This document shows positions 10,381 through 54,928 of a stretch of DNA of 64,000 nucleotides, piece by piece (position 1 is the stretch's first letter; the number at the start of each line of letters is the position of its first letter). The DNA lies in contig NZ_NMWV01000011.1 in assembly GCF_002860405.1 (NCBI RefSeq), positions 62,001-126,000 on the forward strand, written 5' to 3'. The DNA is from Bifidobacterium imperatoris. GTDB taxonomy: Bacteria > Actinomycetota > Actinomycetes > Actinomycetales > Bifidobacteriaceae. The notes beneath the pieces are model-generated. The model saw only the letters and a list, made by a program, of their open reading frames with translations. It had not been told where the DNA came from and searched no databases. The position numbers and the translations under genes are program-made.

Positions 10381-10385
10381 CAAGT

Positions 10386-17177: not shown

Positions 17178-17211
17178 GAGTAAGCCTCTCGGGAAAAGGT
17201 CTGCACACATT

Positions 17212-39459: not shown

Positions 39460-40179
39460 ATGAGCGAGACTGTGCGCGATGCGTTGTTTGTAGTCGTGCT
39501 ATTCGCGGCGAACGTGATTCAGGCAATCACCGGATTCGCAGGAACCGTGCTTGCCATGCCGTTCTCCATGCTGCTGCTCGGTACCGATACCGCCAAAGTA
39601 GTACTGAATATCACCACATTATTGGCATGTTTATGGCTCGGTGTGCAGCACCATGCACATATTCGCTGGCGTATTCTTGCTGAGATGGTGGGGCTTATGG
39701 CTATCGGCATGGCGGCCGGCGTAGCACTCTATGTAGTGCTGCCTCTCGACCCGTTGCAGAAGGCCTATGGCGTGTTCATCATCGTGATTGCGTTGAAAAA
39801 TCTGATATGGCCGTCTCATGCGGAGCCGCCGCACTGGCTGCTTGTCATCATCGTGTTGTTGGCCGGTGTGATTCATGGCATGTTCATCTCCGGTGGTGCG
39901 CTACTGGTGATTTACGCTGCGGTGCGACTCAAAGACAAGAATGAATTCCGCGCCACGATGGCATGCGTATGGGTGGCGCTGAACTCGGTGCTGGCTGTGC
40001 AACAAGGGGTGTCCGGTGTAATGACGCCACATGCGTTAATGCTCACCGCGGTGTCGATTCCGCCGCTGATTGTGGCGATTGCCATCGGCAACCATCTGCA
40101 AAAGCAGGTGAGCCAGCAGGCTTTCCTGAAACTCACCTATGTGCTGCTGGTGATTTCCGGCGCCTCGATTGTGCTATAG
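39460..40179 (+). CDS. tauE: TSUP/TauE-SafE family exporter (candidate isethionate exporter)
   Basis: Eight-helix membrane protein of 239 residues in the sulfite/organosulfonate exporter family. The ATG at 39460 follows ACAAGGAGGGCC, a perfect site, while an upstream GTG at 39427 has none. Signature FAANVIQAITGFAGTVLAMP near residue 15 and VIHGMFISGGALLVIYAAV in the second half are the two TSUP repeats. It is the first gene of the taurine-type cluster and only 15 bases before the PucR gene. Proteins of this family export isethionate or sulfolactate-type products in other taurine pathways; that role here is inferred from context. Confidence 0.78.
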   Translation: MSETVRDALFVVVLFAANVIQAITGFAGTVLAMPFSMLLLGTDTAKVVLNITTLLACLWLGVQHHAHIRWRILAEMVGLMAIGMAAGVALYVVLPLDPLQKAYGVFIIVIALKNLIWPSHAEPPHWLLVIIVLLAGVIHGMFISGGALLVIYAAVRLKDKNEFRATMACVWVALNSVLAVQQGVSGVMTPHALMLTAVSIPPLIVAIAIGNHLQKQVSQQAFLKLTYVLLVISGASIVL

Positions 40180-40194
40180 CGGAGAGGAGCTGCT

Positions 40195-41367
40195 ATGACC
40201 GTCCGATTGAAGGAATTAGTGGAGCAGGCCGCCGATAAGGATATGGTGCTGGTGGCTGGCAAAGGCGGGCTCGAACGGCCGGTGAGTTGGGTGCACATGG
40301 TCGAAAACGAGGAGATTGCAGGCTTCCTCGAGGGGCAAGAAATCGCCTTTACCACCGGCATCGGCTTGGAAACTCAGGAAGATCTCTACCCGCTGGTCAA
40401 AAGTGCCTATGCTTCTGGAGCTACCGGTGTGGTAGTGAATATCGGCCCGTTCATCCACCAAATCAGCCCAGATACGATTCGGTTCTGCGATAAGCATGAT
40501 TTCCCGCTATTCAAAGTGCCGTGGAGCGTGCACATGGCGCAGATCATGCACAGCTTCAGCTTGGCCATCACGATGAGCGAGAAGCATAGCATGGAGCTGG
40601 CAGCCGCTCTGGAGAACGCCATCTTCCACCCGGATCGCGAGGAAATGTACCTTGAATACCTCGAACAATCCGGATTTGGCAAGGACTGGAACTATTGCGT
40701 CACCGTGTTCAGCGCGTGCGGAGAAACGAGCGGTCATGACGCCGAACGCATCGCCAAATACTCGCGTGAAGCCGAATCGTTGATTACGTCGAACCAGTGG
40801 CGTGTGGCCGTGGCGCATATCGAAGAGCGTCTTGTACTGGTGTTTGCTCGGTATACAGCTGAGCAGGTGGAAATGATGGTGCGTGAAATCATCGCTGCGA
40901 TACGCAGTCGCGGAGTGATTCTTGAACGCACATACATTGGTGTCGGCAAAGTCACTAGATCCGCTCGTTGCATTGGCAAAAGCTATAATCAGGCACTCAA
41001 ATTGGAACGATTGCAGCATCTGCGCGGGCGCGTGGGCGAGGTTGCGCTCTACGACAATTCAGGTATCGATAAACTGTTGCTTGCCGTTTCAGATCGTGCG
41101 ATTTTGGAAGATTACTATCAAGACAGCATTGGGCCACTGGTGGAATACGACCGTGTGAACGGTACCGATTTGACCGAAACGCTGCATGCGTACTTCCAGT
41201 TCTCCGGCTCGGTCAAGGAGACTGCAGCCAGCATGTTTGTGCACCGCAACACCGTGAGCTACAAACTCAACAAAATCGAAGACATTCTGGGTGTAAGTTT
41301 GTCTGATTTTCGTACGCGCGAGTTCCTTTCTGTGGGATTGCAAGTGCGCGAGATTCTTGATTGCTAG
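40195..41367 (+). CDS. PucR family transcriptional regulator of the taurine-type cluster
   Basis: 390 residues. The N-terminal PucR domain (LKELVEQAADKDMVLVAGKG to about residue 130) is followed by a GGDEF-like variant and the C-terminal PucR helix-turn-helix (SGSVKETAASMFVHRNTVSY, KLNKIEDILGVSL). The family controls purine, nitrogen-source or amine catabolism. The ATG follows GGAGAGG. Located between the exporter and the aminotransferase, it is likely to sense taurine, an intermediate or nitrogen status and to drive the operon starting at 41595. Confidence 0.87.
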   Translation: MTVRLKELVEQAADKDMVLVAGKGGLERPVSWVHMVENEEIAGFLEGQEIAFTTGIGLETQEDLYPLVKSAYASGATGVVVNIGPFIHQISPDTIRFCDKHDFPLFKVPWSVHMAQIMHSFSLAITMSEKHSMELAAALENAIFHPDREEMYLEYLEQSGFGKDWNYCVTVFSACGETSGHDAERIAKYSREAESLITSNQWRVAVAHIEERLVLVFARYTAEQVEMMVREIIAAIRSRGVILERTYIGVGKVTRSARCIGKSYNQALKLERLQHLRGRVGEVALYDNSGIDKLLLAVSDRAILEDYYQDSIGPLVEYDRVNGTDLTETLHAYFQFSGSVKETAASMFVHRNTVSYKLNKIEDILGVSLSDFRTREFLSVGLQVREILDC

Positions 41368-41372
41368 GAGTG

Positions 41373-41394
41373 TGATTGTGCTGGAGCACAATCA
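41373..41394 (+). terminator. Hairpin after the PucR gene
   Basis: Perfect 10-bp stem TGATTGTGCT-GG-AGCACAATCA a few bases after the pucR stop; only TCTTTA follows, so termination would be weak. It may also be a regulatory site upstream of the aminotransferase operon. Confidence 0.45.
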
Positions 41395-41594
41395 TCTTTA
41401 GGTTCTGCAATATAGAACGGCAGCGCGTTCGCTCATAGACTGCAAAGCAATCACGGAATCCACAAGGATTTCATGCAGTCGCCGAACGGATGACATGCGG
41501 AACCAAATGTTTCGATTGTGTATCGTGCACATTTCTTTCTCTCACATCGTCTCATCCATTCGGCTCACCAAAGCCCCTAAGAAAGGATGAGACG

Positions 41595-42956
41595 ATGAGC
41601 GAATCACTGGCAACCAAGGAACTGACCGGCGAAGAAGTTGCTGAACTGCACCGCGAGTATGTGATGCAATCCTGGCACAAGCAGGGCGAGCCGGTGATGC
41701 CGGTCAAGTCCGCTAAGGGCATCTACGTTTACGACTATGACGGCAACAAGTACGCCGATATGTCGTCCCTGCTGGTGTGTTCCAACCTCGGCCACGAACT
41801 GCCGGAGATTGTGGACGCCATCAAGGATCAGGCCAGCAAGATGTGCTTCATGGCACCGGCCTATGCCTCTGAGCCGAAGTCCAAGCTCGCCAAGATGATC
41901 GTCGACCTTGCCGGCAACGACTTCTACCAGCGCGTATTCTTCACCAACGGCGGCGCTGATTCCAACGAAAACGCCATCAAGATGGCCCGCATGGTCACCG
42001 GCCGCCAGAAGATCTTCAGCTGCTACCGCTCCTACCACGGCTCCACCTTGGGTGCATCCTTTGCTTCCGGCGACTGGCGTCGTTTCGCCACTGAAGCCGG
42101 CGGCGCAGCCCCGAGCTTCGTGCACTTCATGAACCCGAACATGTACGAGGACGGCTTCAACCGTGGTGAGGATGACGAGAAGGTTACGGCCCTGTACTTG
42201 AAGCGCCTTGAAGATCAGCTCATCTACGAGAACCCGGATGACGTGGCCGCCATCCTGATGGAATCCATCGTTGGCGCCAACGGTGTGATTTTGCCGCCGA
42301 AGGGCTACATGGAAGGCGTTCGTGCCCTATGCGACAAGTATGGCATCCTGATGATTTGCGACGAGGTCATGGCAGGCTGGTGCCGCACCGGCAAGATGTT
42401 CGCCTGGCAGAACTTCGACATCAAGCCTGATATCTTCACCTTCGCCAAGGGCGTTACCTGCGGTTACGTGCCGCTGGGAGGCGTGGTGGTCTCCAAGCGG
42501 ATTTCCGACTACTTCACCGATCACGTACTGCAGTGCGGCCTGACCTACTCCGGCCACACGCTGGCCTGCGCCGCCGGCGTCGCCGCAGTCAACTACTACG
42601 TCGAGCATGATATCGCCGGCCACGTCAAGGAGATGGAAGGCATTTTGAAGCCATTCCTCGAAGAGATGGAAGCCAAGCACAAGTGCGTAGGCGAATCCCG
42701 CTGCATCGGTCTGTTCTCCGCCATGACCATCGTCAAGAACAAGGAAACCCGCGAGCTGATGAGCCCGTACCACACCGCCAACCCGGTGATGGGCAAGATC
42801 ATGGGTGCCCTGAAAGACAAGGGCTTCCTGACCTTCGGCCGTGAAACCAACGTGAACATCTGCCCGCCGCTGACCATCACCGCTGAAGAGCTCAAGGCCG
42901 AACTGCCCAAGGTGGACGAAGTCCTGACCTGGGTCGACGAAAACTTCTGCGATTGA
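41595..42956 (+). CDS. toa: Class III aminotransferase, probable taurine aminotransferase
   Basis: PLP enzyme of 453 residues. ATG 41595 with AAAGGA 7 bases upstream; the frame is open further but the family start MSESLATKELTGEEVAELH is clear. Motifs: SSLLVCSNLGHELPEIV, FFTNGGADSNENAIKMAR, SYHGSTLGAS, DEVMAGWCRTGKMF, PLP lysine K285 in FTFAKGVTCGYVPLGG. This subgroup includes taurine:pyruvate and taurine:2-oxoglutarate aminotransferases. With the dehydrogenase next to it, it would convert taurine to sulfoacetaldehyde, placing the amino group on glutamate or alanine. Which keto acid it uses cannot be read from sequence; other omega-amino acids are alternatives. Confidence 0.82.
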   Translation: MSESLATKELTGEEVAELHREYVMQSWHKQGEPVMPVKSAKGIYVYDYDGNKYADMSSLLVCSNLGHELPEIVDAIKDQASKMCFMAPAYASEPKSKLAKMIVDLAGNDFYQRVFFTNGGADSNENAIKMARMVTGRQKIFSCYRSYHGSTLGASFASGDWRRFATEAGGAAPSFVHFMNPNMYEDGFNRGEDDEKVTALYLKRLEDQLIYENPDDVAAILMESIVGANGVILPPKGYMEGVRALCDKYGILMICDEVMAGWCRTGKMFAWQNFDIKPDIFTFAKGVTCGYVPLGGVVVSKRISDYFTDHVLQCGLTYSGHTLACAAGVAAVNYYVEHDIAGHVKEMEGILKPFLEEMEAKHKCVGESRCIGLFSAMTIVKNKETRELMSPYHTANPVMGKIMGALKDKGFLTFGRETNVNICPPLTITAEELKAELPKVDEVLTWVDENFCD

Positions 42957-42986
42957 CCGCCTGCTCGCGCTGGGAAAGGAAACATC

Positions 42987-44117
42987 ATGCTTTGGGATTA
43001 TCAACAGCCGGTAGCTATTCGCTTCGGCAATGGTCGCGTTCGAGAAATCAAGGATGTGGCCGCTTCGATGGGCTTGACTGAAGGCGGCTTGCTCGTTTCA
43101 GAACATCTCTTCGCACAAAACGGCACTGCAGAGAAAATCGTTAAGGACTCCGAAGGAGCCATCAGTGAGATCTTCTCCGACTTCTCGCCGAACCCGGACG
43201 TTACTGAAGTGGACAAGGCTGCGGCCCTGATTCGCGAAAAGCACCTGAAATTCGTCGTGGCGATGGGCGGTGGCAGTGCAATGGACCTCGCCAAGTCAGC
43301 GGCCAGCATCGCATTGACCAACGATTCCATAGCCGAATACCACGGCACCGGTAAGGCCATGCCGCAGGAGCATCTGCCGATTATCGCAGTGCCCACCACA
43401 GCAGGCACCGGCTCAGAAGTCACTTGCGTATCCGTGCTCACCAATCGTGCGCTCGGCAAGAAAGCACCGATCGTCTCTGACGGCTTCTTCCCATCCGTGG
43501 CCATCATCGACCCGGAACTCACCTACTCGGTGCCACCGCACGTCACCGCATCGACCGGTATGGACGTGCTGAGCCAGGCAATCGAAGGCTACTGGAGTAA
43601 AGGCCATCAGCCGATCTGCGACGCCTGCGCCATCCACGCGGCACCGCTGGTCTTCAAATACCTGCCCATCGCTGTGGCCGAACCGAACAACGCCGAGGCT
43701 CGTCAAAAAATGTGCGAGGCGTCAGTGATTGCAGGTCTCGCTTTCACGCTGCCGAAGACCACATCCTCGCACGCCTGCTCCTTCCCGCTGACCAATATTC
43801 ACGGCATTCCGCACGGTGAGGCTTGTGGCTTGACGCTTGATTGGTTCGCCCGCATCAACAAGAATGCCCAGCATGGCCGCGTGCAGGAGTTCGCTCGCGC
43901 CATCGGCTTTGAAGACGTCGATGCAATGGCCGACGCCATCCATGAACTCAAGGTCAAGGTGGGTCTGCGTACCGGATTGAAGGATCTCAACCTGAACGCC
44001 GAGCAGATCGCCGACCTGGTGCGCATCAGCCGCCATCCGAACCTGTACAACAACCCAGTCGAAATCACCGATGAGATGCTCCAGGACATGTACGAGCACC
44101 TCGCCGCCACCGACTGA
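42987..44117 (+). CDS. tauF: Iron-type alcohol dehydrogenase, probable sulfoacetaldehyde reductase
   Basis: 376 residues, group III (iron-dependent) alcohol dehydrogenase: N-terminal NAD domain with VVAMGGGSAMDLAKSAASI, AVPTTAGTGSEVTCVSV, and the metal site HACSFPLTNIHGIPHGEACG (several His) in the helical domain. AAAGGA precedes the ATG 9 bases away. Immediately downstream of the aminotransferase, it would reduce the aldehyde product. In some gut bifidobacteria an enzyme of this family reduces sulfoacetaldehyde to isethionate so that taurine serves as a nitrogen source, without sulfonate cleavage. The match of neighbours to that pathway supports the assignment. Confidence 0.8.
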   Translation: MLWDYQQPVAIRFGNGRVREIKDVAASMGLTEGGLLVSEHLFAQNGTAEKIVKDSEGAISEIFSDFSPNPDVTEVDKAAALIREKHLKFVVAMGGGSAMDLAKSAASIALTNDSIAEYHGTGKAMPQEHLPIIAVPTTAGTGSEVTCVSVLTNRALGKKAPIVSDGFFPSVAIIDPELTYSVPPHVTASTGMDVLSQAIEGYWSKGHQPICDACAIHAAPLVFKYLPIAVAEPNNAEARQKMCEASVIAGLAFTLPKTTSSHACSFPLTNIHGIPHGEACGLTLDWFARINKNAQHGRVQEFARAIGFEDVDAMADAIHELKVKVGLRTGLKDLNLNAEQIADLVRISRHPNLYNNPVEITDEMLQDMYEHLAATD

Positions 44118-44169
44118 TCGCCGCGGAACCGGTAAACGGCATCTACAACCAACACGCAAGGAGACGATG

Positions 44170-45861
44170 ATGGCAACGATCTACACTGGCGGCACAATCC
44201 GCACGATGACTGCGCCCGATGCAACCGCTCAGGCACTGCTCACGGATGACCGCGGCTGCATCGCCTTCGTGGGAAGCCTTGATGAAGCCCGCAATCGCGC
44301 ACAGTCCATGATTACTGTGGGTGGACGTGTTCCTCAGGAGCACGACCTTGCCGGAGCCTGTCTGATGCCAGGCTTCATCGACTCCCATTCGCATTTCGCC
44401 GGCATGGGTCAGCGTCTGACGGACGCCGACCTGGCCGGCTGTGCCGATTTTGCCGAAATCGGCACCCGACTCAAGACTTTTCTGGCTGCACATCCACTGC
44501 CCGCAGGCGGTGTGCTGCACGGCTTCAATTATGATCAAAACGAGCTGGCTGAAGGCGTGCACCCCGACCGCCACGTACTCGATGCCATGCTCGGTGATGT
44601 GCCGACGGTCATCTCCCACGTATCCGGGCATGTGATCATCGTCAACACCGCACTGTTGAAGCTCATTGGCCTCGACCTGGATGCCGAAGCGCCAACCGGT
44701 GGCGTGTACGGCAAGGATACGGATGGCAAACTCAACGGCTACTTCGCCGAAACGCCTGCAATCATGCCGATTCTGATGTATCCGGCGGTCATGCCAAGCC
44801 AAGGCGTCGAAGACCTGGCCGATGCCATCCAGAACGATTACGCATCCCACGGCATCACCACCTGCCAGGATGGTGCCACCGCACCCGGATACGCCGAACG
44901 ATTCGTCAAACTCGCCGAAAATCACCAGCTGAAGCTTGATCTGACCTGCTACCCCATGATGGGGCAGGATCTGGATGCCGTATTCGAATCCGTTGGCTCC
45001 TATGCCAGCGGTGGCACCAGCGAGGGCATCCAATATCTGAATCATCTGCGCTTCGGTGGCGTGAAACTGTTCGTGGACGGATCCCCGCAGGCGCGAGGCG
45101 CTTGGCTTTCCGAACCTTACGAGCCGCTGCCGGCATCTGCAAAAGCCAGCGAGCCGGCCGGCTACCGAGGCGCGGGCATCCTTAGCGACGAGGCCATGCG
45201 TGCATTCCTCGACCATGCGCTCGAACGCGGCTGGAAGGTCATGGCGCATTGCAACGGCGATGCCGCCAGCGAACAATTCCTCACCCAATACACCGCCGCC
45301 TACCGTGCCAGCAGCAAACCCGACAAATTCGATCTGCGCCCGGTGATGGTCCACTGCCAACTCACCCGCAACGATCAGTACGCGCGCATGGCAGCCGTGC
45401 ACATGATTCCCTCGATATTCGTCTCCCACTGCTGGTTCTGGGGTGACGCGCACATCAAAAACTTGGGATTCGAGCGGGCCTCCCGCATTTCCGCAGTGCA
45501 TGACGCACTTGACTACAATCTTCCTTTCACTTTCCACACCGATTCACCCATTGTGCCGCCGGATCTCATCTTCGCGGCATGGTGCGCCATGACCCGCGTT
45601 ACCAAGCACGGTGTTGAGCTCGATCAGGCGCAATGCGTCGGTGCATGGGAGGCTTTCAGCGCCATCACGCGCAATGCGGCCTACCAATACGGCGAAGAAG
45701 CGCGCAAAGGCACTCTGGAAGCCGGCAAACTCGCCGATCTCACGATTCTTGACGCGGACCCGCTGGCCGCGTCGGCGGATAAGGCCGAAGCTGCGGCCAA
45801 AGTCCGCGAACTCAACGTACTCGAAACCATCAAGGAAGGAACCACGGTTTGGACAGCGTGA
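44170..45861 (+). CDS. YtcJ-like metal-dependent amidohydrolase
   Basis: 563 residues; two adjacent ATGs (44167, 44170), the second at the better distance from AAGGAG. The N-terminal beta-sandwich leads into the amidohydrolase barrel: H73 and H75 in PGFIDSHSHF, then MAHCNGDAASEQFL, MVHCQLTRNDQYARM and FTHTDSPIVPPDLIFAAW-like end motifs (FHTDSPIVPP), and the closing LADLTILDADP. The YtcJ family hydrolyses N-acyl, N-formyl or cyclic amides in amino-acid and amine catabolism. Its presence between tauF and the symporter suggests it releases the amine that feeds the aminotransferase. Not a known member of described taurine clusters, as far as I recall. Confidence 0.78.
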   Translation: MATIYTGGTIRTMTAPDATAQALLTDDRGCIAFVGSLDEARNRAQSMITVGGRVPQEHDLAGACLMPGFIDSHSHFAGMGQRLTDADLAGCADFAEIGTRLKTFLAAHPLPAGGVLHGFNYDQNELAEGVHPDRHVLDAMLGDVPTVISHVSGHVIIVNTALLKLIGLDLDAEAPTGGVYGKDTDGKLNGYFAETPAIMPILMYPAVMPSQGVEDLADAIQNDYASHGITTCQDGATAPGYAERFVKLAENHQLKLDLTCYPMMGQDLDAVFESVGSYASGGTSEGIQYLNHLRFGGVKLFVDGSPQARGAWLSEPYEPLPASAKASEPAGYRGAGILSDEAMRAFLDHALERGWKVMAHCNGDAASEQFLTQYTAAYRASSKPDKFDLRPVMVHCQLTRNDQYARMAAVHMIPSIFVSHCWFWGDAHIKNLGFERASRISAVHDALDYNLPFTFHTDSPIVPPDLIFAAWCAMTRVTKHGVELDQAQCVGAWEAFSAITRNAAYQYGEEARKGTLEAGKLADLTILDADPLAASADKAEAAAKVRELNVLETIKEGTTVWTA

Positions 45862-45914
45862 TTGCCGTGCGCGGATAACAGCGAGCACGGCGCAAGACCA
45901 AGAGAGGCATCGTC

Positions 45915-47552
45915 ATGGGAAAGACACACAACAGCAAGTCAGCATCGGCGGATGGCAGTAGTACTGCTGTCGTCAGACCATTCGGCTGGCGAGACAAAAT
46001 CGGATACATGTGCGGCGATTTCGGCACGGACTTCATGTTCGTGTTCGCCGGCACCTGGTTCATGATCTTCTACACCAAGGTCATGGGCATCCCCGGTACC
46101 ATCGTCGGCACCTTGTTCCTGCTGGCGCGCGTGCTCGACGCGGTGATGGACGTGACCGTCGGCGTGGTAGTGGACCGTTCCAAAGACCATCCGGGCGGCA
46201 AATTCCGTGTGACCATGATGCGATTCACCGCACCGCTCGTGATCCTCTCCTTCCTCATGTACCAGACGTTCGCCATTGATGCCGCCATGTGGGTCAAGAT
46301 TGTCTACATGTCCGTGACCTACGTGGTGTGGTGCTTCTTCTACTCCTGCGTCAACATCCCGTTCGGCTCCCTGGCCTCCACCATTTCCGCCGAAGCAGAC
46401 GACCGCACCAGCCTGTCCACCATGCGCAGCATGGGTGGCACTATCGGCGGCTTGATTCTCGGCATTGTGGCACCAATCGTGATTTACCAGAAGGTGGACG
46501 GTCATCAGGTCATCCGTGGTGGCGACGGCACACATATCTTCGCCATCGTGGCTGCAGTAGTATCCATTGCCGCATTCATCGGCTACCTGATCTGCTACTT
46601 CAACGTAACCGAACGCGTGCATCCCGACCCTGATCAGAACGCCAAGGAAGGCGAGAAGCGCTCGCCTGTGCACATGATTGCCAACGCGTTCTCCTCCCGT
46701 TCGATGCTGGGTATCGTGGCCGCCGCCCTGTGCTTGCTGGTGGCGCAGCTGTTCAGCAACCAGCTGATGACCTACGTGTACACCGACGTGTTCGGTTCGG
46801 CGGCGCTCGCCTCCATCTCCGGCCTGCTCGGCACGGCGGTGATGTTCCTGGTAGTGCCGTTCGTCAAGCCTTTGACTCGACGCTTCGGCCGCAAGTCCAT
46901 CTGCGCGTTCGCCTCAGCGCTGGGCGCTGTCTCCATGCTGCTGCTGTTCGTGATTCAAACCCGCAGCGGCATCGTGTTCCTCGTTGGCGCAGTGTTCATG
47001 TACTTCGCGCTGATGGGCTTCAACTTGGTGATCTGGGCCATGATCACCGATGTGATCGACGATATCGAAGTCACACGTGACACTCGTGAGGAAGCCACCT
47101 GCTTCTCCTGCTACTCGTTCGCCCGCAAGATCGGCCAGGCAGTGGCCGGTGAGCTGGCCGGCCTGTCGCTCGACTGGGTCGGCTACCAATCCGGTGCCAC
47201 AGCAGTGCAATCGGCGGCCACCAAGACCGCGCTCTACAATGTGGCGACCCTGGTGCCCGGCGTATTCTTCCTGCTCACCTTTGTGTGCCTGGTGATTATC
47301 TACCCGTTAAGCCGTGACCGAGTGCTCTACAACGTGGAGGTGCTACGCGTCAAGCGCAAGGGCATCACCGGCGAAGAAGCTCGCCTGCTCGTCAAGTACG
47401 AGGGCATCACCCCGACCGGCACCGCGCCGGAAGGCAGCACCATCGAATGGCCTGACTTCCATGAGCTCGAACGTGCACGTGAACTCTCCGCCCGTACCGG
47501 AATCGCGATTCGCGATCCGCAGGCAGAGGCGTCGACGCATATCGAACAGTAA
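45915..47552 (+). CDS. GPH-type MFS cation symporter
   Basis: 545 residues, twelve helices, glycoside-pentoside-hexuronide:cation symporter family (MelB-like): RPFGWRDKIGYMCGDFGTDF at residue 20, the helix I-IV region LLARVLDAVMDVTVGVVVDR with the conserved Asp pair, EADDRTSLSTMRSMGG. The C-terminus carries an unusual hydrophilic extension of about 75 residues (from about 470) after the last helix, reaching the cytoplasm. GPH proteins normally import sugars or glycosides, and a few import other acids. AAGAGAGG lies before the ATG. In this cluster it may import the substrate of the amidohydrolase. Confidence 0.85.
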   Translation: MGKTHNSKSASADGSSTAVVRPFGWRDKIGYMCGDFGTDFMFVFAGTWFMIFYTKVMGIPGTIVGTLFLLARVLDAVMDVTVGVVVDRSKDHPGGKFRVTMMRFTAPLVILSFLMYQTFAIDAAMWVKIVYMSVTYVVWCFFYSCVNIPFGSLASTISAEADDRTSLSTMRSMGGTIGGLILGIVAPIVIYQKVDGHQVIRGGDGTHIFAIVAAVVSIAAFIGYLICYFNVTERVHPDPDQNAKEGEKRSPVHMIANAFSSRSMLGIVAAALCLLVAQLFSNQLMTYVYTDVFGSAALASISGLLGTAVMFLVVPFVKPLTRRFGRKSICAFASALGAVSMLLLFVIQTRSGIVFLVGAVFMYFALMGFNLVIWAMITDVIDDIEVTRDTREEATCFSCYSFARKIGQAVAGELAGLSLDWVGYQSGATAVQSAATKTALYNVATLVPGVFFLLTFVCLVIIYPLSRDRVLYNVEVLRVKRKGITGEEARLLVKYEGITPTGTAPEGSTIEWPDFHELERARELSARTGIAIRDPQAEASTHIEQ

Positions 47553-47601
47553 TGCCGCCGGCAAGATTCGTGAACGAATGTGAACACTAAGGAGAGACGA
47601 T

Positions 47602-48519
47602 ATGAGTGAAGCGACAACACCGAATCCGGATACGCCAGTCGTGGCGGGAACCGCGGTGGCCGGCACATCAATTGTGGAAGGTGCGGCTACCGCCAAGCGC
47701 AAACCGATGCCGGCATGGATGAAGTCGAAGAAAATCCAGCCGATTATCTCGCTGGTGTTGCTGATTGCCGTATGGTGGGGTGTCACCTCGGCAGGTCTGA
47801 TCAATTCGTTGTATCTGCCTGGCCCGAAAGCCGTATGGGATGCATTCATCGAGGCAAACAGCTGCCGCCCGGCATCAGCTGGTTCCTCACGTATCGTCTG
47901 CGGTGAGCAGCAGTACTTCCTCTGGCAGCATCTCGTAGTCTCGCTGGAACGCATCGGCATCGGCATGGCGTTGGGCATTGTGGTCGGCGTGCTGGTCGGC
48001 TTCATTCTGGCGGAAATCGGTTGGTTGAACCGCATCATCCTGCCGTACATCAACTTCATTCGCGCACTGCCGCCGCTCGGCTACATCGGCCTCTTGATTG
48101 TCTGGTTCGGTATCGGTGACACCACCAAGATCTGGCTGCTGTTCCTTGCCGCATTCCCGCCGATTGTGCTCGCCACCGTTGATGGCATCAACGGTGTGAA
48201 CCGTGATCGCGTGAACTCCGCGCTATCGTTGGGCGCTTCCCGCCCGAAGGCGTTCCTGTTCGTCGTCTTCCCAAGCGCATTGCCCTCCATTATGAACGGC
48301 ATCCGACTGGCGGTCGGCTTCGCTTGGACCACCGTGGTGGCCGCCGAACTTAACAATGGTATCCCCGGTATCGGCGCGCTCGCCTATCTCTCCGGCACCG
48401 AACTCAATACGCCACTGACCATCGCCTGCATCTTCGTGATCGGCATCGCGGCCCTGCTGCTCGACTGGCTGATTCTCGGCATCACCCATCTGGTGACCCC
48501 GTGGGTGGGCAAGGAATAG
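47602..48519 (+). CDS. tauC: Sulfonate/taurine-type ABC permease
   Basis: 305 residues, six-helix permease of the SsuC/TauC/NrtB family. An N-terminal Ala/Pro/Thr-rich stretch (1-45) precedes the first helix (SLVLLIAVWWGVTSAGLIN). The EAA loop is LGASRPKAFLFVVFPSALPS, and LAVGFAWTTVVAAELN is typical of the family. AAGGAGAG is the ribosome binding site. The usual order A-B-C is replaced by C-A-B here. Followed by a repeat element (48543-48594) and the receptor gene. Confidence 0.9.
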   Translation: MSEATTPNPDTPVVAGTAVAGTSIVEGAATAKRKPMPAWMKSKKIQPIISLVLLIAVWWGVTSAGLINSLYLPGPKAVWDAFIEANSCRPASAGSSRIVCGEQQYFLWQHLVVSLERIGIGMALGIVVGVLVGFILAEIGWLNRIILPYINFIRALPPLGYIGLLIVWFGIGDTTKIWLLFLAAFPPIVLATVDGINGVNRDRVNSALSLGASRPKAFLFVVFPSALPSIMNGIRLAVGFAWTTVVAAELNNGIPGIGALAYLSGTELNTPLTIACIFVIGIAALLLDWLILGITHLVTPWVGKE

Positions 48520-48542
48520 GTGCCGTTGTGATGACGAATCCT

Positions 48543-48594
48543 CTCAGCTCCCCCTGTGAGGGGAGCTACCGGCAAAGCCGACTGAGGGGTAGTC
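48543..48594. repeat. Intergenic hairpin repeat (GAGGGG/CTGAGGGG family), copy 1
   Basis: AGCTCCCC-CTGTG-AGGGGAGCT hairpin followed by CCGGCAAAGCCGACTGAGGG. A nearly identical element in the same orientation lies at 50610-50659. It sits between tauC and tauA. Confidence 0.75.
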
Positions 48595-48644
48595 ATATGG
48601 AGTGCGCGACATCAACGTTGTACGTCGTAAGAGAGGAATCGAAC

Positions 48645-49733
48645 ATGCGTGAAACAACCCGTGAAACAGTCCGTAAGATTGGTGCATTGCTGGTATCCGC
48701 TACAGTACTCACTAGCCTTGCCGGCTGCGGCAAAATGCCCACCGCCGACGAACTGGTCGGCAACACCTCGGGCGCAGCCGTAACTGACTGCCCAGTGTCA
48801 TCAGCCAAGAACGAGGACTTCAAAGGTACCATCCGCATCGCGTGGCAGGCCATTCCGAACGCGGACCTGATTGTCAAAGATAAGGGACTGTTGGAAGCCT
48901 GTTTGCCGAACGCCACTATCCAATGGAGTCAATTCAACTCCGGTGGTGATGTGATTCAGGCGTTCGGCTCGAACTCACTGGATATCGGCTTGGCTGGCTC
49001 CTCGCCGGCCGTGCGTGCGGCATCGGCCCCGCTGAACCTGCCGGTCAAAGTGGTGTGGATTCATGACATCATCGGTGACGCTGAATCTCTGGTGGCCCAC
49101 GGTGGTGACTACAAGTCCATTAAAGATCTTGCCGGCAAGAACATCGCCGTACCATTTGGTTCTACCTCGCACTTCTCGCTGCTTTCCGCATTGCACAATG
49201 CTGGCATGAACGAAACCAGCGTGAACCTCATCAACCTTGACCCGGACAAGATGTCCGCCGCGTGGACCCGCGGCGAAATCGATGCGGCCTGGGTGTGGGA
49301 TCCGGTCTTGAGCAAGCTGAAGGCGGACGGCGGCGCCATCGTGACCTCCAGCGCGGCCACTGCAAAATCCGGTTCCGCCACATACGATATGGAGCTTGCT
49401 ACCGACGCGTTCATCAAGGCCAATCCGAAGGTGATGGAGACCTGGACCGCCGTGGAGAATTATGCGGCTGGGCTGATCTCCAGCAAAGAGGCGGACTCCG
49501 CGGAATCTATTTCCACGATTCTCGGCAACTCGGTGGCTGATGTGAAAAAGCAGTTCAAGGGCTACACCTACCCGCAGGCCAAGGATCAAAGCGATATCTT
49601 CCACGGCCAGCTGCCAGGCATCTTCAAGGACACCGCCGAATTCCTCAAGACCCAAGGCAGTCTGGACAAGGTAAGCGACGACTACTCCAGCGTGCTGTAC
49701 ACCGATGCCATCGACCAAGTGGCCAAGCAGTAG
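48645..49733 (+). CDS. tauA: Sulfonate/taurine ABC receptor lipoprotein
   Basis: 362 residues from ATG 48645 with GAGAGGA upstream. Signal peptide ends in a lipobox SLAGC (Cys about residue 28). The receptor domain is of the SsuA/TauA type (NMT1-like): FKGTIRIAWQAIPNADLIVK, GGDVIQAFGSNSLDIGLAGS, IAVPFGSTSHFSLLSALHNA, RGEIDAAWVWDPVLSKL. The last motif forms the sulfonate-binding pocket in TauA proteins. Between permease and ATPase of the same importer. Confidence 0.9.
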   Translation: MRETTRETVRKIGALLVSATVLTSLAGCGKMPTADELVGNTSGAAVTDCPVSSAKNEDFKGTIRIAWQAIPNADLIVKDKGLLEACLPNATIQWSQFNSGGDVIQAFGSNSLDIGLAGSSPAVRAASAPLNLPVKVVWIHDIIGDAESLVAHGGDYKSIKDLAGKNIAVPFGSTSHFSLLSALHNAGMNETSVNLINLDPDKMSAAWTRGEIDAAWVWDPVLSKLKADGGAIVTSSAATAKSGSATYDMELATDAFIKANPKVMETWTAVENYAAGLISSKEADSAESISTILGNSVADVKKQFKGYTYPQAKDQSDIFHGQLPGIFKDTAEFLKTQGSLDKVSDDYSSVLYTDAIDQVAKQ

Positions 49734-49745
49734 AAAGGACTTATC

Positions 49746-50594
49746 ATGGCGAACGACAACGTACTCACCTGGGGTGAGCTCACCGAGAAGAAGACGATGG
49801 ATGACCAGGGCGTGGCCGTGGATATCCGCGGTGTCAATAAGCGCTTCGTTACCCAGCAGGGCGACCATGTGACTGCTCTGCACGATATCAATCTGACCAT
49901 CAACAAACACGACTTCATTTGTGTGGTCGGTCGTTCCGGTTGCGGCAAAACCACGCTGCTTAACATGCTGGCCGGATTTGAAAAGCCATCAGACGGCGAA
50001 CTGATCTCCGGTGGCGTGGCCATCAACGGCCCCAGCCCGAAGCGTGGTGTGGTCTTCCAGAAGCCGCCGCTCTACCCGTGGCTCACCGTGCGCAAGAATG
50101 TGGAATTCGGCATGAAAATGCAAGGTGTTCCGGCGGGCGAGCGCAAAGAGAAGGCTGATCACTTCCTTGACTTGGTGGGGCTGGCCTCCGCTGCCGACCG
50201 CCGTCCATACGAACTCTCCGGCGGCATGCAGCAGCGTGCGCAAATTGCCCGCGTGCTCGCCACCGAGCCGGACCTGATTCTGATGGACGAACCCTATGGT
50301 GCACTGGACGCCTTGACCCGCGAGAAGCTGCAGAACGAGCTGCTGCGCATCTGGCGCGAACGTCACAGCACGGTGTTCTTCATCACCCACAGCGTGGACG
50401 AGGCCATTTTCCTGGCCACTCGCGTGATTGTGATGAGCGCGCATCCGGGAACCGTGAAAATGGATATTCCGATTACGCTCCCGCGCGACCCTGATGATCC
50501 GGACAATATGGAGAAAGTGCGTGCCATGCCGGAATTCGTGAAGCTGCGGGAGGAAATCACCCAAGCCATCTACGTCCAGGACGATCAGGAGTAG
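49746..50594 (+). CDS. tauB: Sulfonate/taurine ABC ATP-binding protein
   Basis: 282 residues with Walker A GRSGCGKTTLLN, signature LSGGMQQRAQIARVLA, Walker B LILMDEPYGALD and switch His in STVFFITHSVDEAIFLATR. The SsuB/TauB/NrtD family is confirmed by PGTVKMDIPITLPRDPDDPD near the C-terminus. An N-terminal extension of about 23 residues precedes the ATPase core. GAAAGGAC precedes the ATG. Last gene of the taurine-type cluster; copy 2 of the hairpin repeat follows. Confidence 0.92.
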   Translation: MANDNVLTWGELTEKKTMDDQGVAVDIRGVNKRFVTQQGDHVTALHDINLTINKHDFICVVGRSGCGKTTLLNMLAGFEKPSDGELISGGVAINGPSPKRGVVFQKPPLYPWLTVRKNVEFGMKMQGVPAGERKEKADHFLDLVGLASAADRRPYELSGGMQQRAQIARVLATEPDLILMDEPYGALDALTREKLQNELLRIWRERHSTVFFITHSVDEAIFLATRVIVMSAHPGTVKMDIPITLPRDPDDPDNMEKVRAMPEFVKLREEITQAIYVQDDQE

Positions 50595-51299: not shown

Positions 51300-51303
51300 C
51301 ACC

Positions 51304-52236
51304 ATGTTTACTCCCGAAGCATCGCAGCGGATGTTCCATGTCGATCAAGACCTTGATTACGACTCGGTCATCGACGACGACCATCACGAATCATGGGGAT
51401 GCTCGCCCATCTGCCCGGCCATTGTGCGCGTCCATACGGAAATGCCGGCACAGGATGTGCCATTGCATTGGCATCTGGGCAGTGAACTGATCTACTCCCG
51501 TCATGGGCGAGTGCACATATTCATCGACGGCGAAGAAACCACCATCGATGATGGACAGATATGCTTGATGAGTCCTAAAAGTCTGCATTCCATTCATCCC
51601 GACCCATACAAGGACGGGCAATGCTGCCTGTCCATCACCTTCGATGGTGAATATCTTTCCCGGTTGAACGCAGGCCTATCAAACCGCCATCTCGTGCAAG
51701 GTGTGCCGCTGGGGCGCGGCTGCGAACACACTGCCGACGAATTGGTGGATTTGTGCGAGCGCATGATCGACTGCGTATTCAGTGAATCGGACATGCAGCT
51801 CATCTGCATGAATGCCCTCCTGTATACCATCCTGAATCATCTCGATAAGGAATGGACGCTTGACAATGCTTCACAGCAGACCGCAACGGCTTTGGGAGAA
51901 ATCCAGAACATCACCGACTATATGAGCACGCACTTCGCCAGCGATATCACCATTGCTCAGATTGCACAACGTTTCGGGTATTCACGCGAATACTTCTCCC
52001 GACTGTTCAAACGCTGCTCCGGCGTGACCCCAGACCAGTACCTGACCGAAATTCGTCTGCAGTCATCAGTGGATGATCTATTGAACGGCGACTTCACCAT
52101 CGCGCAAATTGCCGAGCGCAACGGATTCTCCCATCCGCGCTCGCTGGCCCGCGCGTTTGCCGCCAGATTCGGCATGACTCCGGCCGCATTCCGCAGACAT
52201 TATCGCGGGAGCGGCAACGCGGTCGGCGAACACTGA
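51304..52236 (+). CDS. AraC family transcriptional regulator
   Basis: 310 residues from ATG 51304. The N-terminal cupin-like sensing domain contains LHWHLGSELIYSRHGRVHIF and MSPKSLHSIHPD; the C-terminal double helix-turn-helix reads ITIAQIAQRFGYSREYFSRL and FTIAQIAERNGFSHPRSLAR. It probably activates the MFS transporter and two esterases downstream in response to an imported or released compound. The gene begins 4 bases after rsmD and may rely on that transcript. Confidence 0.92.
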   Translation: MFTPEASQRMFHVDQDLDYDSVIDDDHHESWGCSPICPAIVRVHTEMPAQDVPLHWHLGSELIYSRHGRVHIFIDGEETTIDDGQICLMSPKSLHSIHPDPYKDGQCCLSITFDGEYLSRLNAGLSNRHLVQGVPLGRGCEHTADELVDLCERMIDCVFSESDMQLICMNALLYTILNHLDKEWTLDNASQQTATALGEIQNITDYMSTHFASDITIAQIAQRFGYSREYFSRLFKRCSGVTPDQYLTEIRLQSSVDDLLNGDFTIAQIAERNGFSHPRSLARAFAARFGMTPAAFRRHYRGSGNAVGEH

Positions 52237-52307
52237 TGTTGCAGTCATTTGATGATTGCGCTTTATGACACTGAAATGGTTACCCTCAAGTATGTCTTGA
52301 TGGAACA

Positions 52308-52322
52308 CGTCACAATGTGACG
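52308..52322. promoter_or_regulatory. Palindrome CGTCAC-AAT-GTGACG upstream of the MFS gene
   Basis: Perfect 6-bp arms, 3-base spacer, about 100 bases before the MFS start and 70 bases after the AraC stop. A candidate operator; AraC proteins more often use direct repeats, so another regulator (for instance a LacI or CRP-like one) is possible. Confidence 0.4.
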
Positions 52323-52424
52323 GATAAGGGTCAATTTTTTGACCAGTTGGCACTTCGTGTGCTCCGTATGCTGAAGACACATTTGCGAACGAGGCAAATC
52401 AATCACAAGCAAAGGAGCTTCAAC

Positions 52425-53693
52425 ATGAGCAACGAACCCGTGATCTCCGGTACTCAGGATGCCGTAGCATCACTGCCACAAAGTGGCGGTGCGCGAACCT
52501 TACTGAAAAGCGCAATCCTGTCGCTGTCCCTGCTGCTGTGCAGCGTTTCGGTGACGATGGCCGTGGTCTCCAGCCTCAAGCAGGACTTCCCGAATGCCTC
52601 CACTATGGAGCTGCAGTCATTCGTGAACGTGCCGGTGATCGGTGGCATCATCGCTACGCTGATTGGCGGTTTCCTGGCCAACAAGGTCGGTAAGAAGAAC
52701 CTGTGCCTGTTGGGAACCCTGCTGTGCTTCGCCGGTGGTTTCCTGCCTATGTTCGTGCCGTCGCTTGCCTTCAAGATCGTGCTTCGTGTGATTTGTGGCT
52801 TCGGAGTCGGCCTGATTCAGCCGCTTTCCGCCTCTCTGATCGTCGACTGCTTCAAGGGGCGCGAAGCCGACACGATGATGGGTATTCAGTCCGCTATGGT
52901 GGGCTTGGGCGCCACAATCTTCTCCTCCGCCATCGCCGGCATCATGACCTTCGATTGGCACTACTTCTACTTCGTCTACTTCATTGCTCTCCTTGTGTTC
53001 TTCATTGTGCTCGTTTTCGTGCCGAACAGTGTGAACGAAATCGGCAAGGTGCACAAGGATGAGCAGTCTACCTCCGACAAGCCGAAGCGCACCAAGATGC
53101 CGTTCGGCGCTTACTTCGGCATGATTCTGCAGATCGTATTCGCCACCGGTTACGGCTTCTACACCGTGAACCTGTCCTTGGCTGCCGAGGAGACCGGTGT
53201 CATCACCGCTGTTCAGGCCGCCACCGTTATGACCGTTGTCTCCATCTCCTCCTTCATCGGCGGTTTCCTGTTCGGTTTCGTCAAGCGCTTCACCGGCATG
53301 TTCATCGGCATCATCGCCATCGCTATGGAGGCAGCAGGCTTGTTCCTGTGGGCTAACACCGCTTCTCTGGGCACATGGTATGTTGCAGGCGTGCTCTTCG
53401 GCGTCGGCTTCTGCTGGTTCATGCCGTACGTGAACTTCCTGGTCAATGAGCACACCGATCCGACCATCTCCGCACAGGCCACCTCTTATGCCTTCTTCGG
53501 TAACTCGGTCGGTTCCTTCCTGCCCACCTATGCGTTCGCGGCACTCGGTGCCATCACCGGGCTGACCAGCACCTGGAAGTCCCTGAACGAAGCCGGCGTC
53601 ATGATGATTATCTGCATTGTGATGGTGCTTGTTTTCAACGCCTTCGACAAGAAGAAGCCGGCTGCTGAAGTTTCCGCCGAAGCCGCCAAGTAG
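52425..53693 (+). CDS. MFS transporter linked to esterases
   Basis: 422 residues with twelve helices: first at about 25-45 (LLKSAILSLSLLLCSVSVTM), cytoplasmic motif A IGGFLANKVGKKNLCLLGTL between helices 2 and 3, and a helix 6-7 loop rich in charge (VHKDEQSTSDKPKRTKMPFG). AAAGGAG lies before the ATG at 52425. Position between AraC regulator and two esterases suggests it imports an ester or exports its product; no substrate can be named. Confidence 0.85.
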   Translation: MSNEPVISGTQDAVASLPQSGGARTLLKSAILSLSLLLCSVSVTMAVVSSLKQDFPNASTMELQSFVNVPVIGGIIATLIGGFLANKVGKKNLCLLGTLLCFAGGFLPMFVPSLAFKIVLRVICGFGVGLIQPLSASLIVDCFKGREADTMMGIQSAMVGLGATIFSSAIAGIMTFDWHYFYFVYFIALLVFFIVLVFVPNSVNEIGKVHKDEQSTSDKPKRTKMPFGAYFGMILQIVFATGYGFYTVNLSLAAEETGVITAVQAATVMTVVSISSFIGGFLFGFVKRFTGMFIGIIAIAMEAAGLFLWANTASLGTWYVAGVLFGVGFCWFMPYVNFLVNEHTDPTISAQATSYAFFGNSVGSFLPTYAFAALGAITGLTSTWKSLNEAGVMMIICIVMVLVFNAFDKKKPAAEVSAEAAK

Positions 53694-53765
53694 GCCCGAC
53701 TGGCAGAAGCTCACAATCAAATCAACGCTTGTGGCAGCAATGCCTCACCATTGAATTCCCAACCA

Positions 53766-53788
53766 GTGGCGGTCATTATGGCCGCCAC
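53766..53788. other. Small hairpin between the MFS and esterase genes
   Basis: GTGGCGG (53766-53772) with CCGCCAC (53782-53788), nine-base loop, no T-run. It may separate or stabilise parts of a common transcript rather than end it. Confidence 0.4.
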
Positions 53789-53847
53789 CGTCATAACCAC
53801 ATTCTCATTTGTTCCCCATCCAAGCACTGAAGCTAAGGAAGACTACT

Positions 53848-54873
53848 ATGAATAGTCCGCTGAATGGTTACGCAGCCCCTGATATCTCCTCCATGATTGC
53901 GCCGCCCTCTCCGCAACCGCTCGCCCCCGTTCCCACACCGATTCCGGAAACCAAGTACTTCCAACACACCGATGAAGTGCCGGAAGGCTGCATCGTACTC
54001 GATGAGCCCACTGAGGATTCCTTCGGCTACCCGGTGGATATGGAACAAGTCACCTATGTAACGCGCCAATTGGCGGACGGCACCTCCGTGGATCTGCCGC
54101 TGTGGGTGTTCACGCCGGGCGTGGACAACATGCCGGAAGGCGAGATCCCGGAAGGTGGTTGGCCGGTGATCGTGTTCGTACGCGGTTCGGCCTTCCATGA
54201 GCAGAATGTGCTCGACTACCTTAATTACTATGTGCGCATTGCTGAACGTGGTTATGTGGTGGCTGCCGTGAAATATCGTGCCAGCGACGACGCTCCGTTC
54301 CCGGCGCAGATGCAGGATTGCAAGACCGCGGTTCGCTTCATGCGCACCAATGCCGAACGCTTCCACGCCAATAAGGATCGTGTGGCACTCTGGGGCGACT
54401 CCTCCGGCGGCCACACCGTGCTGATGGCCGGTTTCACAGGTGATACTGTGCCGGATACGTCGGATTATCAGCCGGTGAGTGCTGAAGTGAAGTGCATTGT
54501 GGACTGGTACGGCCCGACCGACTTCGCCATGATGAACCATTACCCGAGTTCGCAGAACCATCATGTGCCTGAATGCCCGGAAGGTGTGGAAATCGGTGGC
54601 GTGGATGTGCTCGAACATCCAGACCTGAACAAGGCGGCTTCGCCGATGACCTACCTAAGCGCAGACCGTCCGACGCCGCCGACGCTGATCATGCACGGTG
54701 GTCGCGATCAGCTGGTGCCATTCAATCAGAGCTGCCGTCTGTATGCCACGATGAGGGCGTTGGGCAAGGATGTGACCTTCTACAAGCTCGATAATTCCTG
54801 CCATGCCTGCTACGGTTTCCGCAGCGACGCCGCGCTGAACATCGTGTTTGACTGGCTTACGAATCGTCTATAA
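53848..54873 (+). CDS. Alpha/beta hydrolase (carboxylesterase-like), copy 1
   Basis: 341 residues from ATG 53848 with AAGGAAG upstream. Hydrolase core: VIVFVRGSAFHEQN (where the hormone-sensitive-lipase group has HGGG, here RGSAF), nucleophile Ser185 in LWGDSSGGHTVLMA, Asp region LIMHGGRDQLVPFNQS, and the late His in NSCHACYGF. No signal peptide. The N-terminus is Pro-rich (about 20-45, PPSPQPLAPVPTPIPE). Residues 191-230 are encoded by a 120-bp tract identical to the next gene. Probably a cytoplasmic acyl or feruloyl/acetyl esterase. Confidence 0.85.
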   Translation: MNSPLNGYAAPDISSMIAPPSPQPLAPVPTPIPETKYFQHTDEVPEGCIVLDEPTEDSFGYPVDMEQVTYVTRQLADGTSVDLPLWVFTPGVDNMPEGEIPEGGWPVIVFVRGSAFHEQNVLDYLNYYVRIAERGYVVAAVKYRASDDAPFPAQMQDCKTAVRFMRTNAERFHANKDRVALWGDSSGGHTVLMAGFTGDTVPDTSDYQPVSAEVKCIVDWYGPTDFAMMNHYPSSQNHHVPECPEGVEIGGVDVLEHPDLNKAASPMTYLSADRPTPPTLIMHGGRDQLVPFNQSCRLYATMRALGKDVTFYKLDNSCHACYGFRSDAALNIVFDWLTNRL

Positions 54874-54928
54874 ACCGTTGTGCCAACTGGGAAAGTTGAG
54901 CCGACCCACACTGTAAAGAAGAAACACT

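What the first reader, a model, noticed from the sequence alone, without database searches (positions are those of the whole stretch)
39460..50594. Putative complete taurine nitrogen-salvage cluster
Nine consecutive plus-strand genes encode a TSUP-type exporter, a PucR regulator, a taurine-type aminotransferase, an iron-type alcohol dehydrogenase, an amidohydrolase, a GPH symporter and TauC, TauA, TauB importer subunits. The order fits import of taurine, transamination to sulfoacetaldehyde, reduction to isethionate and export. I recall a two-enzyme aminotransferase plus iron-dependent sulfoacetaldehyde reductase route reported for gut bifidobacteria, where the sulfonate is discarded and only nitrogen is kept. 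The exporter, reductase and importer here would cover the whole route. Inference rests on family and gene order.
Basis: partly seen in the sequence, partly recalled or inferred. Interest (0 to 1): 0.72.

Follow-up and report, generated by a model that had tools for sequence, protein, structure and literature searches.

The report
Taurine nitrogen-salvage cluster with deconjugation module
This stretch of a Bifidobacterium genome carries the already described gene set for stripping nitrogen from taurine, plus two extra genes that look like an importer and an enzyme for freeing taurine from larger molecules such as bile salts.

Summary
The nine plus-strand genes are real. Seven (TSUP, PucR, Toa, TauF, TauC, TauA, TauB) are a taurine-nitrogen cluster of the kind published for B. 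kashiwanohense (PMC6616044). TauF is 80% identical to the assayed BkTauF with 7 of 7 named residues kept; Toa's best solved match is deposited as taurine:2-oxoglutarate aminotransferase (6jix). That core is already known.

They are absent from the B. kashiwanohense-type cluster and present in 5 of 9 near relatives. The amidohydrolase has, at matching spacing, the five substrate-contact residues that an April 2026 preprint predicts for taurine-specific metal-dependent bile salt hydrolases. Its relatives adjoin taurine genes in two further settings: Collinsella sp. An2, where amidohydrolase and a peptide-type importer stand in for TauABC, and a sister Bifidobacterium group, whose cluster adds an isethionate-lyase-like glycyl radical enzyme and a sulfite reductase. 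I read the pair as import and cleavage of a taurine conjugate. This is inference from context and residues; nothing was assayed. Novel part: a conjugate-fed variant of a known pathway.

The parts
39460..40179 (+). TSUP (TauE/SafE) membrane protein, probable isethionate exporter
   Evidence: Pfam PF01925; match in 16 of 16 assessable toa/tauF clusters without a glycyl radical enzyme and in 0 of 6 with one; no PDB match
40195..41367 (+). PucR-family regulator, probable regulator of the cluster
   Evidence: PF07905, PF13556, PF17853; match in the same 16 clusters and in none of the 6
41374..41393 (+). palindrome GATTGTGCTGGAGCACAATC in the pucR-toa gap; candidate operator or terminator hairpin
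   Evidence: both 7-base arms exact in the window and in 8 of 9 loci L021-L029 (spacer differs in L028), one mismatch in L021; arms exact also in L076 and L077; not found there in L030, L067, L071, L101; RNA fold z -3.32
41595..42956 (+). toa, taurine:2-oxoglutarate aminotransferase
   Evidence: PDB 6jix 'taurine:2-oxoglutarate aminotransferase' 884 bits, next hit 226; 83% identical to the Toa of L071
42987..44117 (+). tauF, sulfoacetaldehyde reductase
   Evidence: PDB 6jko/6jkp, which the paper gives as BkTauF: 698 bits, next 168; 301 of 375 identical, D192 Q196 F252 T257 H261 F265 H275 all kept
44170..45861 (+). Amidohydro_3 metal-dependent hydrolase, predicted taurine-conjugate amidase (metalloBSH-like, short form)
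   Evidence: PF07969; AlphaFold2 pLDDT 92.8; metal and predicted sulfonate-contact residues kept; relatives near toa or the glycyl radical enzyme in other loci
45915..47552 (+). GPH-family (MFS_2) symporter, predicted importer of the conjugate
   Evidence: TIGR00792 287.9 bits, cut-off 231.35; directly after the amidohydrolase in the 5 near relatives that have either
47602..48519 (+). tauC, ABC permease
   Evidence: PF00528; best NCBIfam hit TauC, below cut-off
48645..49733 (+). tauA, lipoprotein substrate-binding protein
   Evidence: TIGR01729 taurine_ABC_bnd 216.3 bits, below cut-off; best PDB match 6ssy taurine-binding protein; lipobox-like LAGC seen by eye
49746..50594 (+). tauB, ABC ATPase
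   Evidence: best NCBIfam hit taurine ABC ATP-binding subunit, below cut-off

Best explanation
A taurine nitrogen-assimilation operon of the BkToa/BkTauF kind with a built-in front end for taurine conjugates. TauABC imports free taurine. The GPH symporter imports an amide-linked taurine conjugate (an N-acyl taurine or a taurine-conjugated bile salt) and the probably cytosolic Amidohydro_3 enzyme cuts it with a dinuclear metal centre to release taurine. Toa moves the amino group to 2-oxoglutarate, giving glutamate and sulfoacetaldehyde; TauF reduces sulfoacetaldehyde with NADH to isethionate; TSUP exports it; PucR controls the genes. Shown in print for a near homologue: the TauF step in vitro. 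Inferred here: every step in this organism, the exporter, the regulator, and the substrate of the amidohydrolase/GPH pair.
For: Core: PDB matches to BkTauF and to taurine:2-oxoglutarate aminotransferase far above the next hit; all 7 TauF residues kept; published cluster and kinetics. TSUP is in 16 of 16 assessable isethionate-exporting clusters and in 0 of 6 clusters with an isethionate-lyase-like enzyme. Pair: the amidohydrolase has, at the spacing reported for Bilophila metalloBSH, the metal set H73 H75 K299 H360 H395 D458, the catalytic H154 and the predicted sulfonate contacts S152 Q307 N362 H420 (paper: S194 Q381 N443 H544). These hold in the 120 homologues listed of 591: 120 of 120 at each place except Ser, 119; of seven distant Amidohydro_3 proteins none has the Gln or the Asn, two have the Ser, one the His420, all seven His154. 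The preprint reports that BwBSH1 cuts taurine bile salts and, less efficiently, N-acyl taurines, not glycine conjugates. Context: 11 of 13 sampled Bifidobacteriaceae genomes with a close amidohydrolase (E up to 1e-140) also have toa, against 18 of 151 overall (Fisher p 1.4e-10, not corrected for shared descent). In Collinsella sp. An2 the order is pucR, peptide-type ABC importer, amidohydrolase, tsup, toa, tauF with no TauA or TauC match. Beside the hydrolase lies a GPH (window type), MFS_1 (L059, L060, L063, L098-L100) or Opp-type ABC importer (L061-L063, L101).
Against: No assay. The preprint's short amidohydrolases without the C-terminal domain had weak or no BSH activity and fell in another cluster; the window protein is of that short form. 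Close homologues occur without toa in the stretch fetched (L065, L066, L068, L098, L099, L100), and in L065, L066 and L068 I identified no transporter beside them among the ORFs checked. Named members of the GPH family are sugar carriers, and no GPH match was seen beside the hydrolase in loci outside the window's clade. Four of nine near relatives lack the pair. TauA, TauB and TauC score below curated cut-offs. The Collinsella arrangement is one case. The six clusters without tsup come from one clade and lack pucR too, so the TSUP contrast may be one event of descent.
Confidence: 0.68

Rival explanations
1. Plain taurine nitrogen-salvage cluster; the amidohydrolase and GPH symporter are unrelated cargo that landed between tauF and tauC. 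(Overlaps with the third rival.)
For: Four of nine Bifidobacterium loci lack the pair and have tauF next to tauC (L023, L027, L028, L029); the B. kashiwanohense-type locus lacks it.
Against: Relatives of the same hydrolase lie next to the glycyl radical enzyme of a taurine cluster or between importer and tsup-toa-tauF in other lineages (L059-L063, L101); predicted sulfonate-contact residues kept.
Confidence: 0.25
2. The aminotransferase and dehydrogenase act mainly on another amine and aldehyde (for example beta-alanine or GABA and their semialdehydes) rather than taurine.
For: Class III aminotransferases and Fe-ADHs are broad families; the 25 best NCBIfam hits shown of Toa (of 69) hold no taurine name, and the one sulfonate model hit by TauF (SarD) is far below its cut-off, 165 of 700 bits; the paper found 15% activity of BkTauF with 3-hydroxypropionate relative to isethionate.
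Against: Very close relation to enzymes named or assayed for taurine/isethionate; F252/T257/F265 kept; linkage to TauABC and TSUP.
Confidence: 0.05
3. The hydrolase acts on another N-acyl amine or dipeptide-like amide, and the pair supplies some other nitrogen source. (Overlaps with the first rival.)
For: Opp-type ABC importers beside it in L061-L063 and L101 suggest peptide-like substrates; the nearest solved folds are uncharacterised (3igh, 3icj) or peptidase/deaminase-like; homologues beside MFS genes without toa (L098-L100).
Against: Repeated linkage to sulfonate genes; the Gln/Asn signature is absent from seven of seven distant Amidohydro_3 proteins.
Confidence: 0.2

Closest known systems
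B. kashiwanohense Toa/TauF taurine nitrogen-assimilation cluster (PMC6616044; L071 here)
   Same: Same seven core genes in the same order: tsup, pucR, toa, tauF, tauC, tauA, tauB; TauF 80% identical, all named residues kept
   Different: The window has amidohydrolase and GPH between tauF and tauC and sits between recG and rsmD; L071 shows no match to either gene, nor to recG or rsmD, in the 18 kb fetched
IsfD-type taurine nitrogen clusters of Chromohalobacter and Klebsiella (as described in PMC6616044)
   Same: TauABC, aminotransferase, reductase, exporter logic with isethionate as waste
   Different: Reductase there is an NADPH-dependent SDR (IsfD); here a metal-dependent alcohol dehydrogenase (TauF)
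Metal-dependent bile salt hydrolases (metalloBSH) of Bilophila wadsworthia, PMC13081902
   Same: Amidohydro_3 domain; same metal ligands, catalytic His and four predicted sulfonate contacts by spacing; 3icj is a nearest solved fold in the paper and here
   Different: BwBSH1 is 945 aa, secreted, with a C-terminal domain; the window protein is 563 aa with no evident signal peptide and has a transporter gene beside it
Bilophila taurine dissimilation (SarD, IslA)
   Same: Taurine to sulfoacetaldehyde to isethionate
   Different: No isethionate lyase in the window cluster; its TauF scores 165 bits on the SarD model against a cut-off of 700

Membership tests
TauF-type taurine nitrogen-assimilation cluster | TauF ortholog with D192, Q196, F252, T257, H261, F265, H275 | tested here: met
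   7 of 7 kept, 301 of 375 identical
TauF-type taurine nitrogen-assimilation cluster | Toa-type class III aminotransferase beside it | tested here: met
   6jix 884 bits against 226 for the next; 30 bp upstream of tauF
TauF-type taurine nitrogen-assimilation cluster | TauABC importer and putative exporter in the cluster | tested here: met
   taurine models are the best NCBIfam hits, but the curated cut-offs for TauA, TauB and TauC are not reached
TauF-type taurine nitrogen-assimilation cluster | Growth on taurine as nitrogen source with isethionate excreted | not testable with these tools
   needs culture and LC-MS
metalloBSH (Amidohydro_3) | Dinuclear metal ligands incl. a Lys that can be carboxylated | tested here: met
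   H73 H75 K299 H360 H395 D458 in the window and in 120 of 120 listed homologues; also in the seven distant proteins, so not diagnostic
metalloBSH (Amidohydro_3) | Predicted sulfonate contacts Ser194, Gln381, Asn443, His544 and catalytic His196 | tested here: met
   S152 Q307 N362 H420 H154 by spacing, without the BwBSH1 sequence; Gln and Asn absent from 7 of 7 distant Amidohydro_3 proteins
metalloBSH (Amidohydro_3) | Additional C-terminal domain, secreted, about 945 aa | tested here: not met
   563 aa, amidohydrolase match reaching the C-terminus; no evident signal peptide by eye. Hence not filed as a metalloBSH, only as probably working like one
metalloBSH (Amidohydro_3) | Hydrolysis of taurine-conjugated bile acids | not testable with these tools
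   needs enzyme assay
IslA/SarD taurine dissimilation | Isethionate lyase in the same cluster | tested here: not met
   No glycyl radical enzyme among the nine genes; relatives of the L059 enzyme at E up to 1e-150 in 6 of 151 sampled genomes, all of g28

The most novel reading that the evidence does not exclude
The cluster is a conjugate-fed taurine pathway: a short, cytosolic, metalloBSH-like amidohydrolase with its own importer frees taurine from bile salts or N-acyl taurines, in Bifidobacterium species in which no canonical bile salt hydrolase was found (0 of 5 pair-bearing genomes). The module is exchangeable: in Collinsella sp. An2 it replaces TauABC, and in a sister Bifidobacterium group it feeds an IslA-like C-S lyase and a sulfite reductase, so that taurine conjugates would yield both nitrogen and sulfur.
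Probability: 0.5. Interest if true: 0.72.

Novelty: new variant of a known kind. Interest (0 to 1): 0.5.

Why it matters
The taurine core is published in kind, so the core by itself adds species. The amidohydrolase/transporter pair would matter because it links a very recently described enzyme type (metal-dependent bile salt hydrolase, predominantly found in Desulfovibrionaceae according to the preprint) to nitrogen salvage in Bifidobacterium species (hosts, as I recall, are monkeys) and in a Collinsella, and makes it testable with one purified protein.

Tried and rejected
Considered and rejected: that the aminotransferase/dehydrogenase are generic (solved-structure matches too specific). That the pair is part of the published cluster (no match in the B. 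kashiwanohense-type locus L071, identified by a TauF identical over 375 aligned residues to 6jko). That the glycyl radical enzyme of the sister group is simply HpsG: NCBIfam model NF048011 '(2S)-3-sulfopropanediol dehydratase' scores 1457 bits against a cut-off of 1000, which stands against my isethionate-lyase reading. PDB 7kq3 isethionate sulfite-lyase scores higher (1196 bits) than 6lon (1103), which I take to be HpsG from recall only. Of ten IslA positions checked all ten are kept in the L059 enzyme, but eight of the ten are also kept in 6lon; only T312 and F682 separate them (Ala and Ile in 6lon, read by eye). No IslA model was among the NCBIfam hits, so that library could not decide. This reading is therefore tentative.

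Led nowhere or inconclusive: no solved relative of the TSUP protein; the AlphaFold coordinates (model built from the window protein and 45 of the 120 listed homologues) were not in the Python box, so pocket distances were not measured; the nearest solved folds are uncharacterised. The canonical bile salt hydrolase pattern is not a clean swap: 0 of 5 pair-bearing genomes, but also 0 of 3 near relatives without the pair at this locus (G022, G183, G037), while G116, G121 and G271 have both that family and an amidohydrolase. The palindrome is not found at this place in L030, L067, L071 or L101.

Literature: PMC6616044 parts 1-4 of 5 read; PMC13081902 parts 1-2 of 13, section 9 and passages; PMC8473560, PMC6453916, PMC11489063 and PMC12125255 passages only; the Biochem J 2019 Toa paper seen only as a reference line. 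That I know of no paper on an IslA-type enzyme in Bifidobacterium, or on this amidohydrolase in a taurine cluster, rests on the ten paper searches of open-licence papers only; most listed papers were not opened.


Full report
Observation. The nine genes exist as described, on the + strand and tightly packed. Families were checked against Pfam and NCBIfam. Flanks are rpmB and recG upstream and rsmD downstream. The nearest named relatives found by TauF are Bifidobacterium saguini, B. colobi and B. felsineum (98-99% identity); the window's own assembly is not held.

Core identity. The best solved-structure match of the dehydrogenase is 6jko/6jkp (698 bits, next 168), which PMC6616044 gives as BkTauF. 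The aminotransferase's best match is 6jix, deposited as taurine:2-oxoglutarate aminotransferase (884 bits, next 226). G179 carries a TauF identical to 6jko over 375 aligned residues, so its locus L071 serves here as the published type. Against it the window TauF is 301 of 375 identical and keeps all seven metal or substrate residues named in the paper. L071 has tsup, pucR, toa, tauF, tauC, tauA, tauB and no match to the amidohydrolase or the GPH symporter. In the paper the enzyme reduced sulfoacetaldehyde with kcat 22.83 per s and Km 0.50 mM, preferred NADH, and regained up to 85% activity with Zn and 15% with Fe; the pathway in the organism is called putative.

Distribution. Toa at E <= 1e-150 is in 18 of 151 sampled family genomes, so the trait is patchy. 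Among the nine named Bifidobacterium loci, the cluster lies between recG and rsmD in six (L021-L023, L025-L027), before rsmD in L024 (upstream not held), and elsewhere in L028 and L029, which show no rsmD match after tauB; L071 and the other more distant clusters also lie elsewhere. Of seven regions fetched from species without such a toa, six show recG followed by rsmD at 27 to 397 bp with no match to a cluster gene between; one stretch showed no recG. The cluster at recG-rsmD is therefore an insertion there, or was lost in the others.

TSUP. Among clusters whose upstream side is held, tsup is present in 16 of 16: L021-L023, L025-L028, L030, L067, L069-L071, L073, L076, L077 and L101. L024 and L029 begin too close to toa to tell; L074 and L075 repeat L027 and L026. 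In the six genomes of the sister group g28 whose toa sits with a glycyl radical enzyme, neither tsup nor pucR is matched in the stretches fetched, some of which end at contig ends. This fits export of isethionate by TSUP where isethionate is waste, but the six are one clade and may reflect one event.

The unexplained pair. Amidohydrolase and GPH lie between tauF and tauC in L021, L022, L024, L025 and L026, and tauF adjoins tauC without them in L023, L027, L028 and L029. At 45-50% identity the amidohydrolase recurs in g28, within 10 kb of toa in G093, G108, G116 and G121, and next to the glycyl radical enzyme in G081, where toa is on another contig. Of 13 sampled family genomes with a close amidohydrolase, 11 have toa; in G160 the two genes are on different contigs. 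In L101, whose Toa is that of Collinsella sp. An2, the order is pucR, two Opp-type permeases, SBP_bac_5, two oligo_HPY ATPases, amidohydrolase, tsup, toa, tauF; no TauA or TauC match was found in the 18 kb held. This is the strongest hint of function: the hydrolase and a peptide-type importer take the place of the taurine importer. It is a single case; toa is in 1 of 65 genomes of that family. Against a strict tie, L065, L066, L068, L098, L099 and L100 carry the hydrolase without toa in the stretch fetched, the last three beside MFS genes. Further hydrolase homologues of the Collinsella family were not examined for context.

What the hydrolase does. The preprint PMC13081902 identifies a secreted Amidohydro_3 enzyme of Bilophila that cuts taurine-conjugated bile salts and, less efficiently, other N-acyl taurines, but not glycine conjugates, and names metal ligands, a catalytic His and four predicted sulfonate contacts. 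In the window protein the residues at matching spacing are H73, H75, S152, H154, K299, Q307, H360, N362, H395, H420 and D458. Each is kept in 120 of 120 homologues (the best 120 of 591), Ser in 119. In seven distant Amidohydro_3 proteins of the family (24-27% identical) the metal ligands and H154 are also kept, the Ser in two, H420 in one, and the Gln and Asn in none. The solved relatives 3igh and 3icj have Gly and Ile at the Gln and Asn places (read by eye). So the Gln and Asn are the telling residues. The match is by spacing, since BwBSH1 was not fetched. The preprint's short Bilophila amidohydrolases were weak or inactive on taurocholate, so the window enzyme may prefer other N-acyl taurines. 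Canonical bile salt hydrolase (PF02275) was found in 6 of 20 genomes searched, in none of the five with the pair, and also in none of three close relatives without it.

Sister group. G093, whose amidohydrolase is the same as a protein named from Bifidobacterium sp. 82T24, and five other g28 genomes carry a glycyl radical enzyme, activase, tauBAC, toa, a pyridine-nucleotide oxidoreductase and a siroheme-type nitrite/sulfite reductase (6 of 6, in G081 on two contigs). Flavodoxin is seen in 4 of 6, CbiX and nitroreductase in 2 of 6, the other stretches being cut or ending. The glycyl radical enzyme keeps ten of ten IslA positions checked, eight of which 6lon also keeps; the NCBIfam name is sulfopropanediol dehydratase, which stands against an isethionate lyase. 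TauF is in the cluster in G066 and G108, in another cluster in G116 and G121, and not found at E <= 1e-60 in G081 and G093, so in those two the isethionate-forming step is unaccounted for. If the reading holds, these bifidobacteria would recover sulfur as well as nitrogen from taurine.

Regulation. The pucR-toa gap holds the palindrome GATTGTGCTGGAGCACAATC at 41374-41393. Its two 7-base arms are exact in the window and in 8 of 9 loci L021-L029, with one mismatch in L021, and exact in L076 and L077 with another spacer; L030, L067, L071 and L101 do not show it there. It is a candidate PucR operator; it also folds as a hairpin (z -3.32), so a terminator after pucR is possible.

Verdict. Ordinary in its core, already published in kind; a new variant in carrying what looks like a taurine-conjugate import and cleavage pair.

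Noticed in passing
L059:7345-11341, L060, L061, L062, L063/L064, L072/L102 (sister Bifidobacterium group g28): Taurine genes sit with an isethionate-lyase-like glycyl radical enzyme, its activase and a siroheme sulfite/nitrite reductase, in some with flavodoxin and CbiX: a possible route from taurine to sulfide in Bifidobacterium.
   Followed up: partly
L101 (Collinsella sp. An2), 5747-17862: Taurine cluster in which an oligopeptide-type ABC importer and the amidohydrolase take the place of TauABC.
   Followed up: partly
41374-41393: Conserved palindrome between pucR and toa, candidate operator or terminator.
   Followed up: partly
51301-55936: AraC regulator, MFS transporter and two tandem, similar BD-FAE/alpha-beta hydrolases downstream of rsmD; the same set follows rsmD in L027 and, as far as the locus reaches, in L022.
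   Followed up: no
34887-36401: MocR-type regulator (GntR plus aminotransferase class I/II domain) upstream of rpmB.
   Followed up: no
L059:93-2972 and L102:6414-8992: A second, more distant TauA/B/C-like ABC importer (NMT1-type binding protein in L102) near the sister-group cluster, substrate unknown.
   Followed up: no
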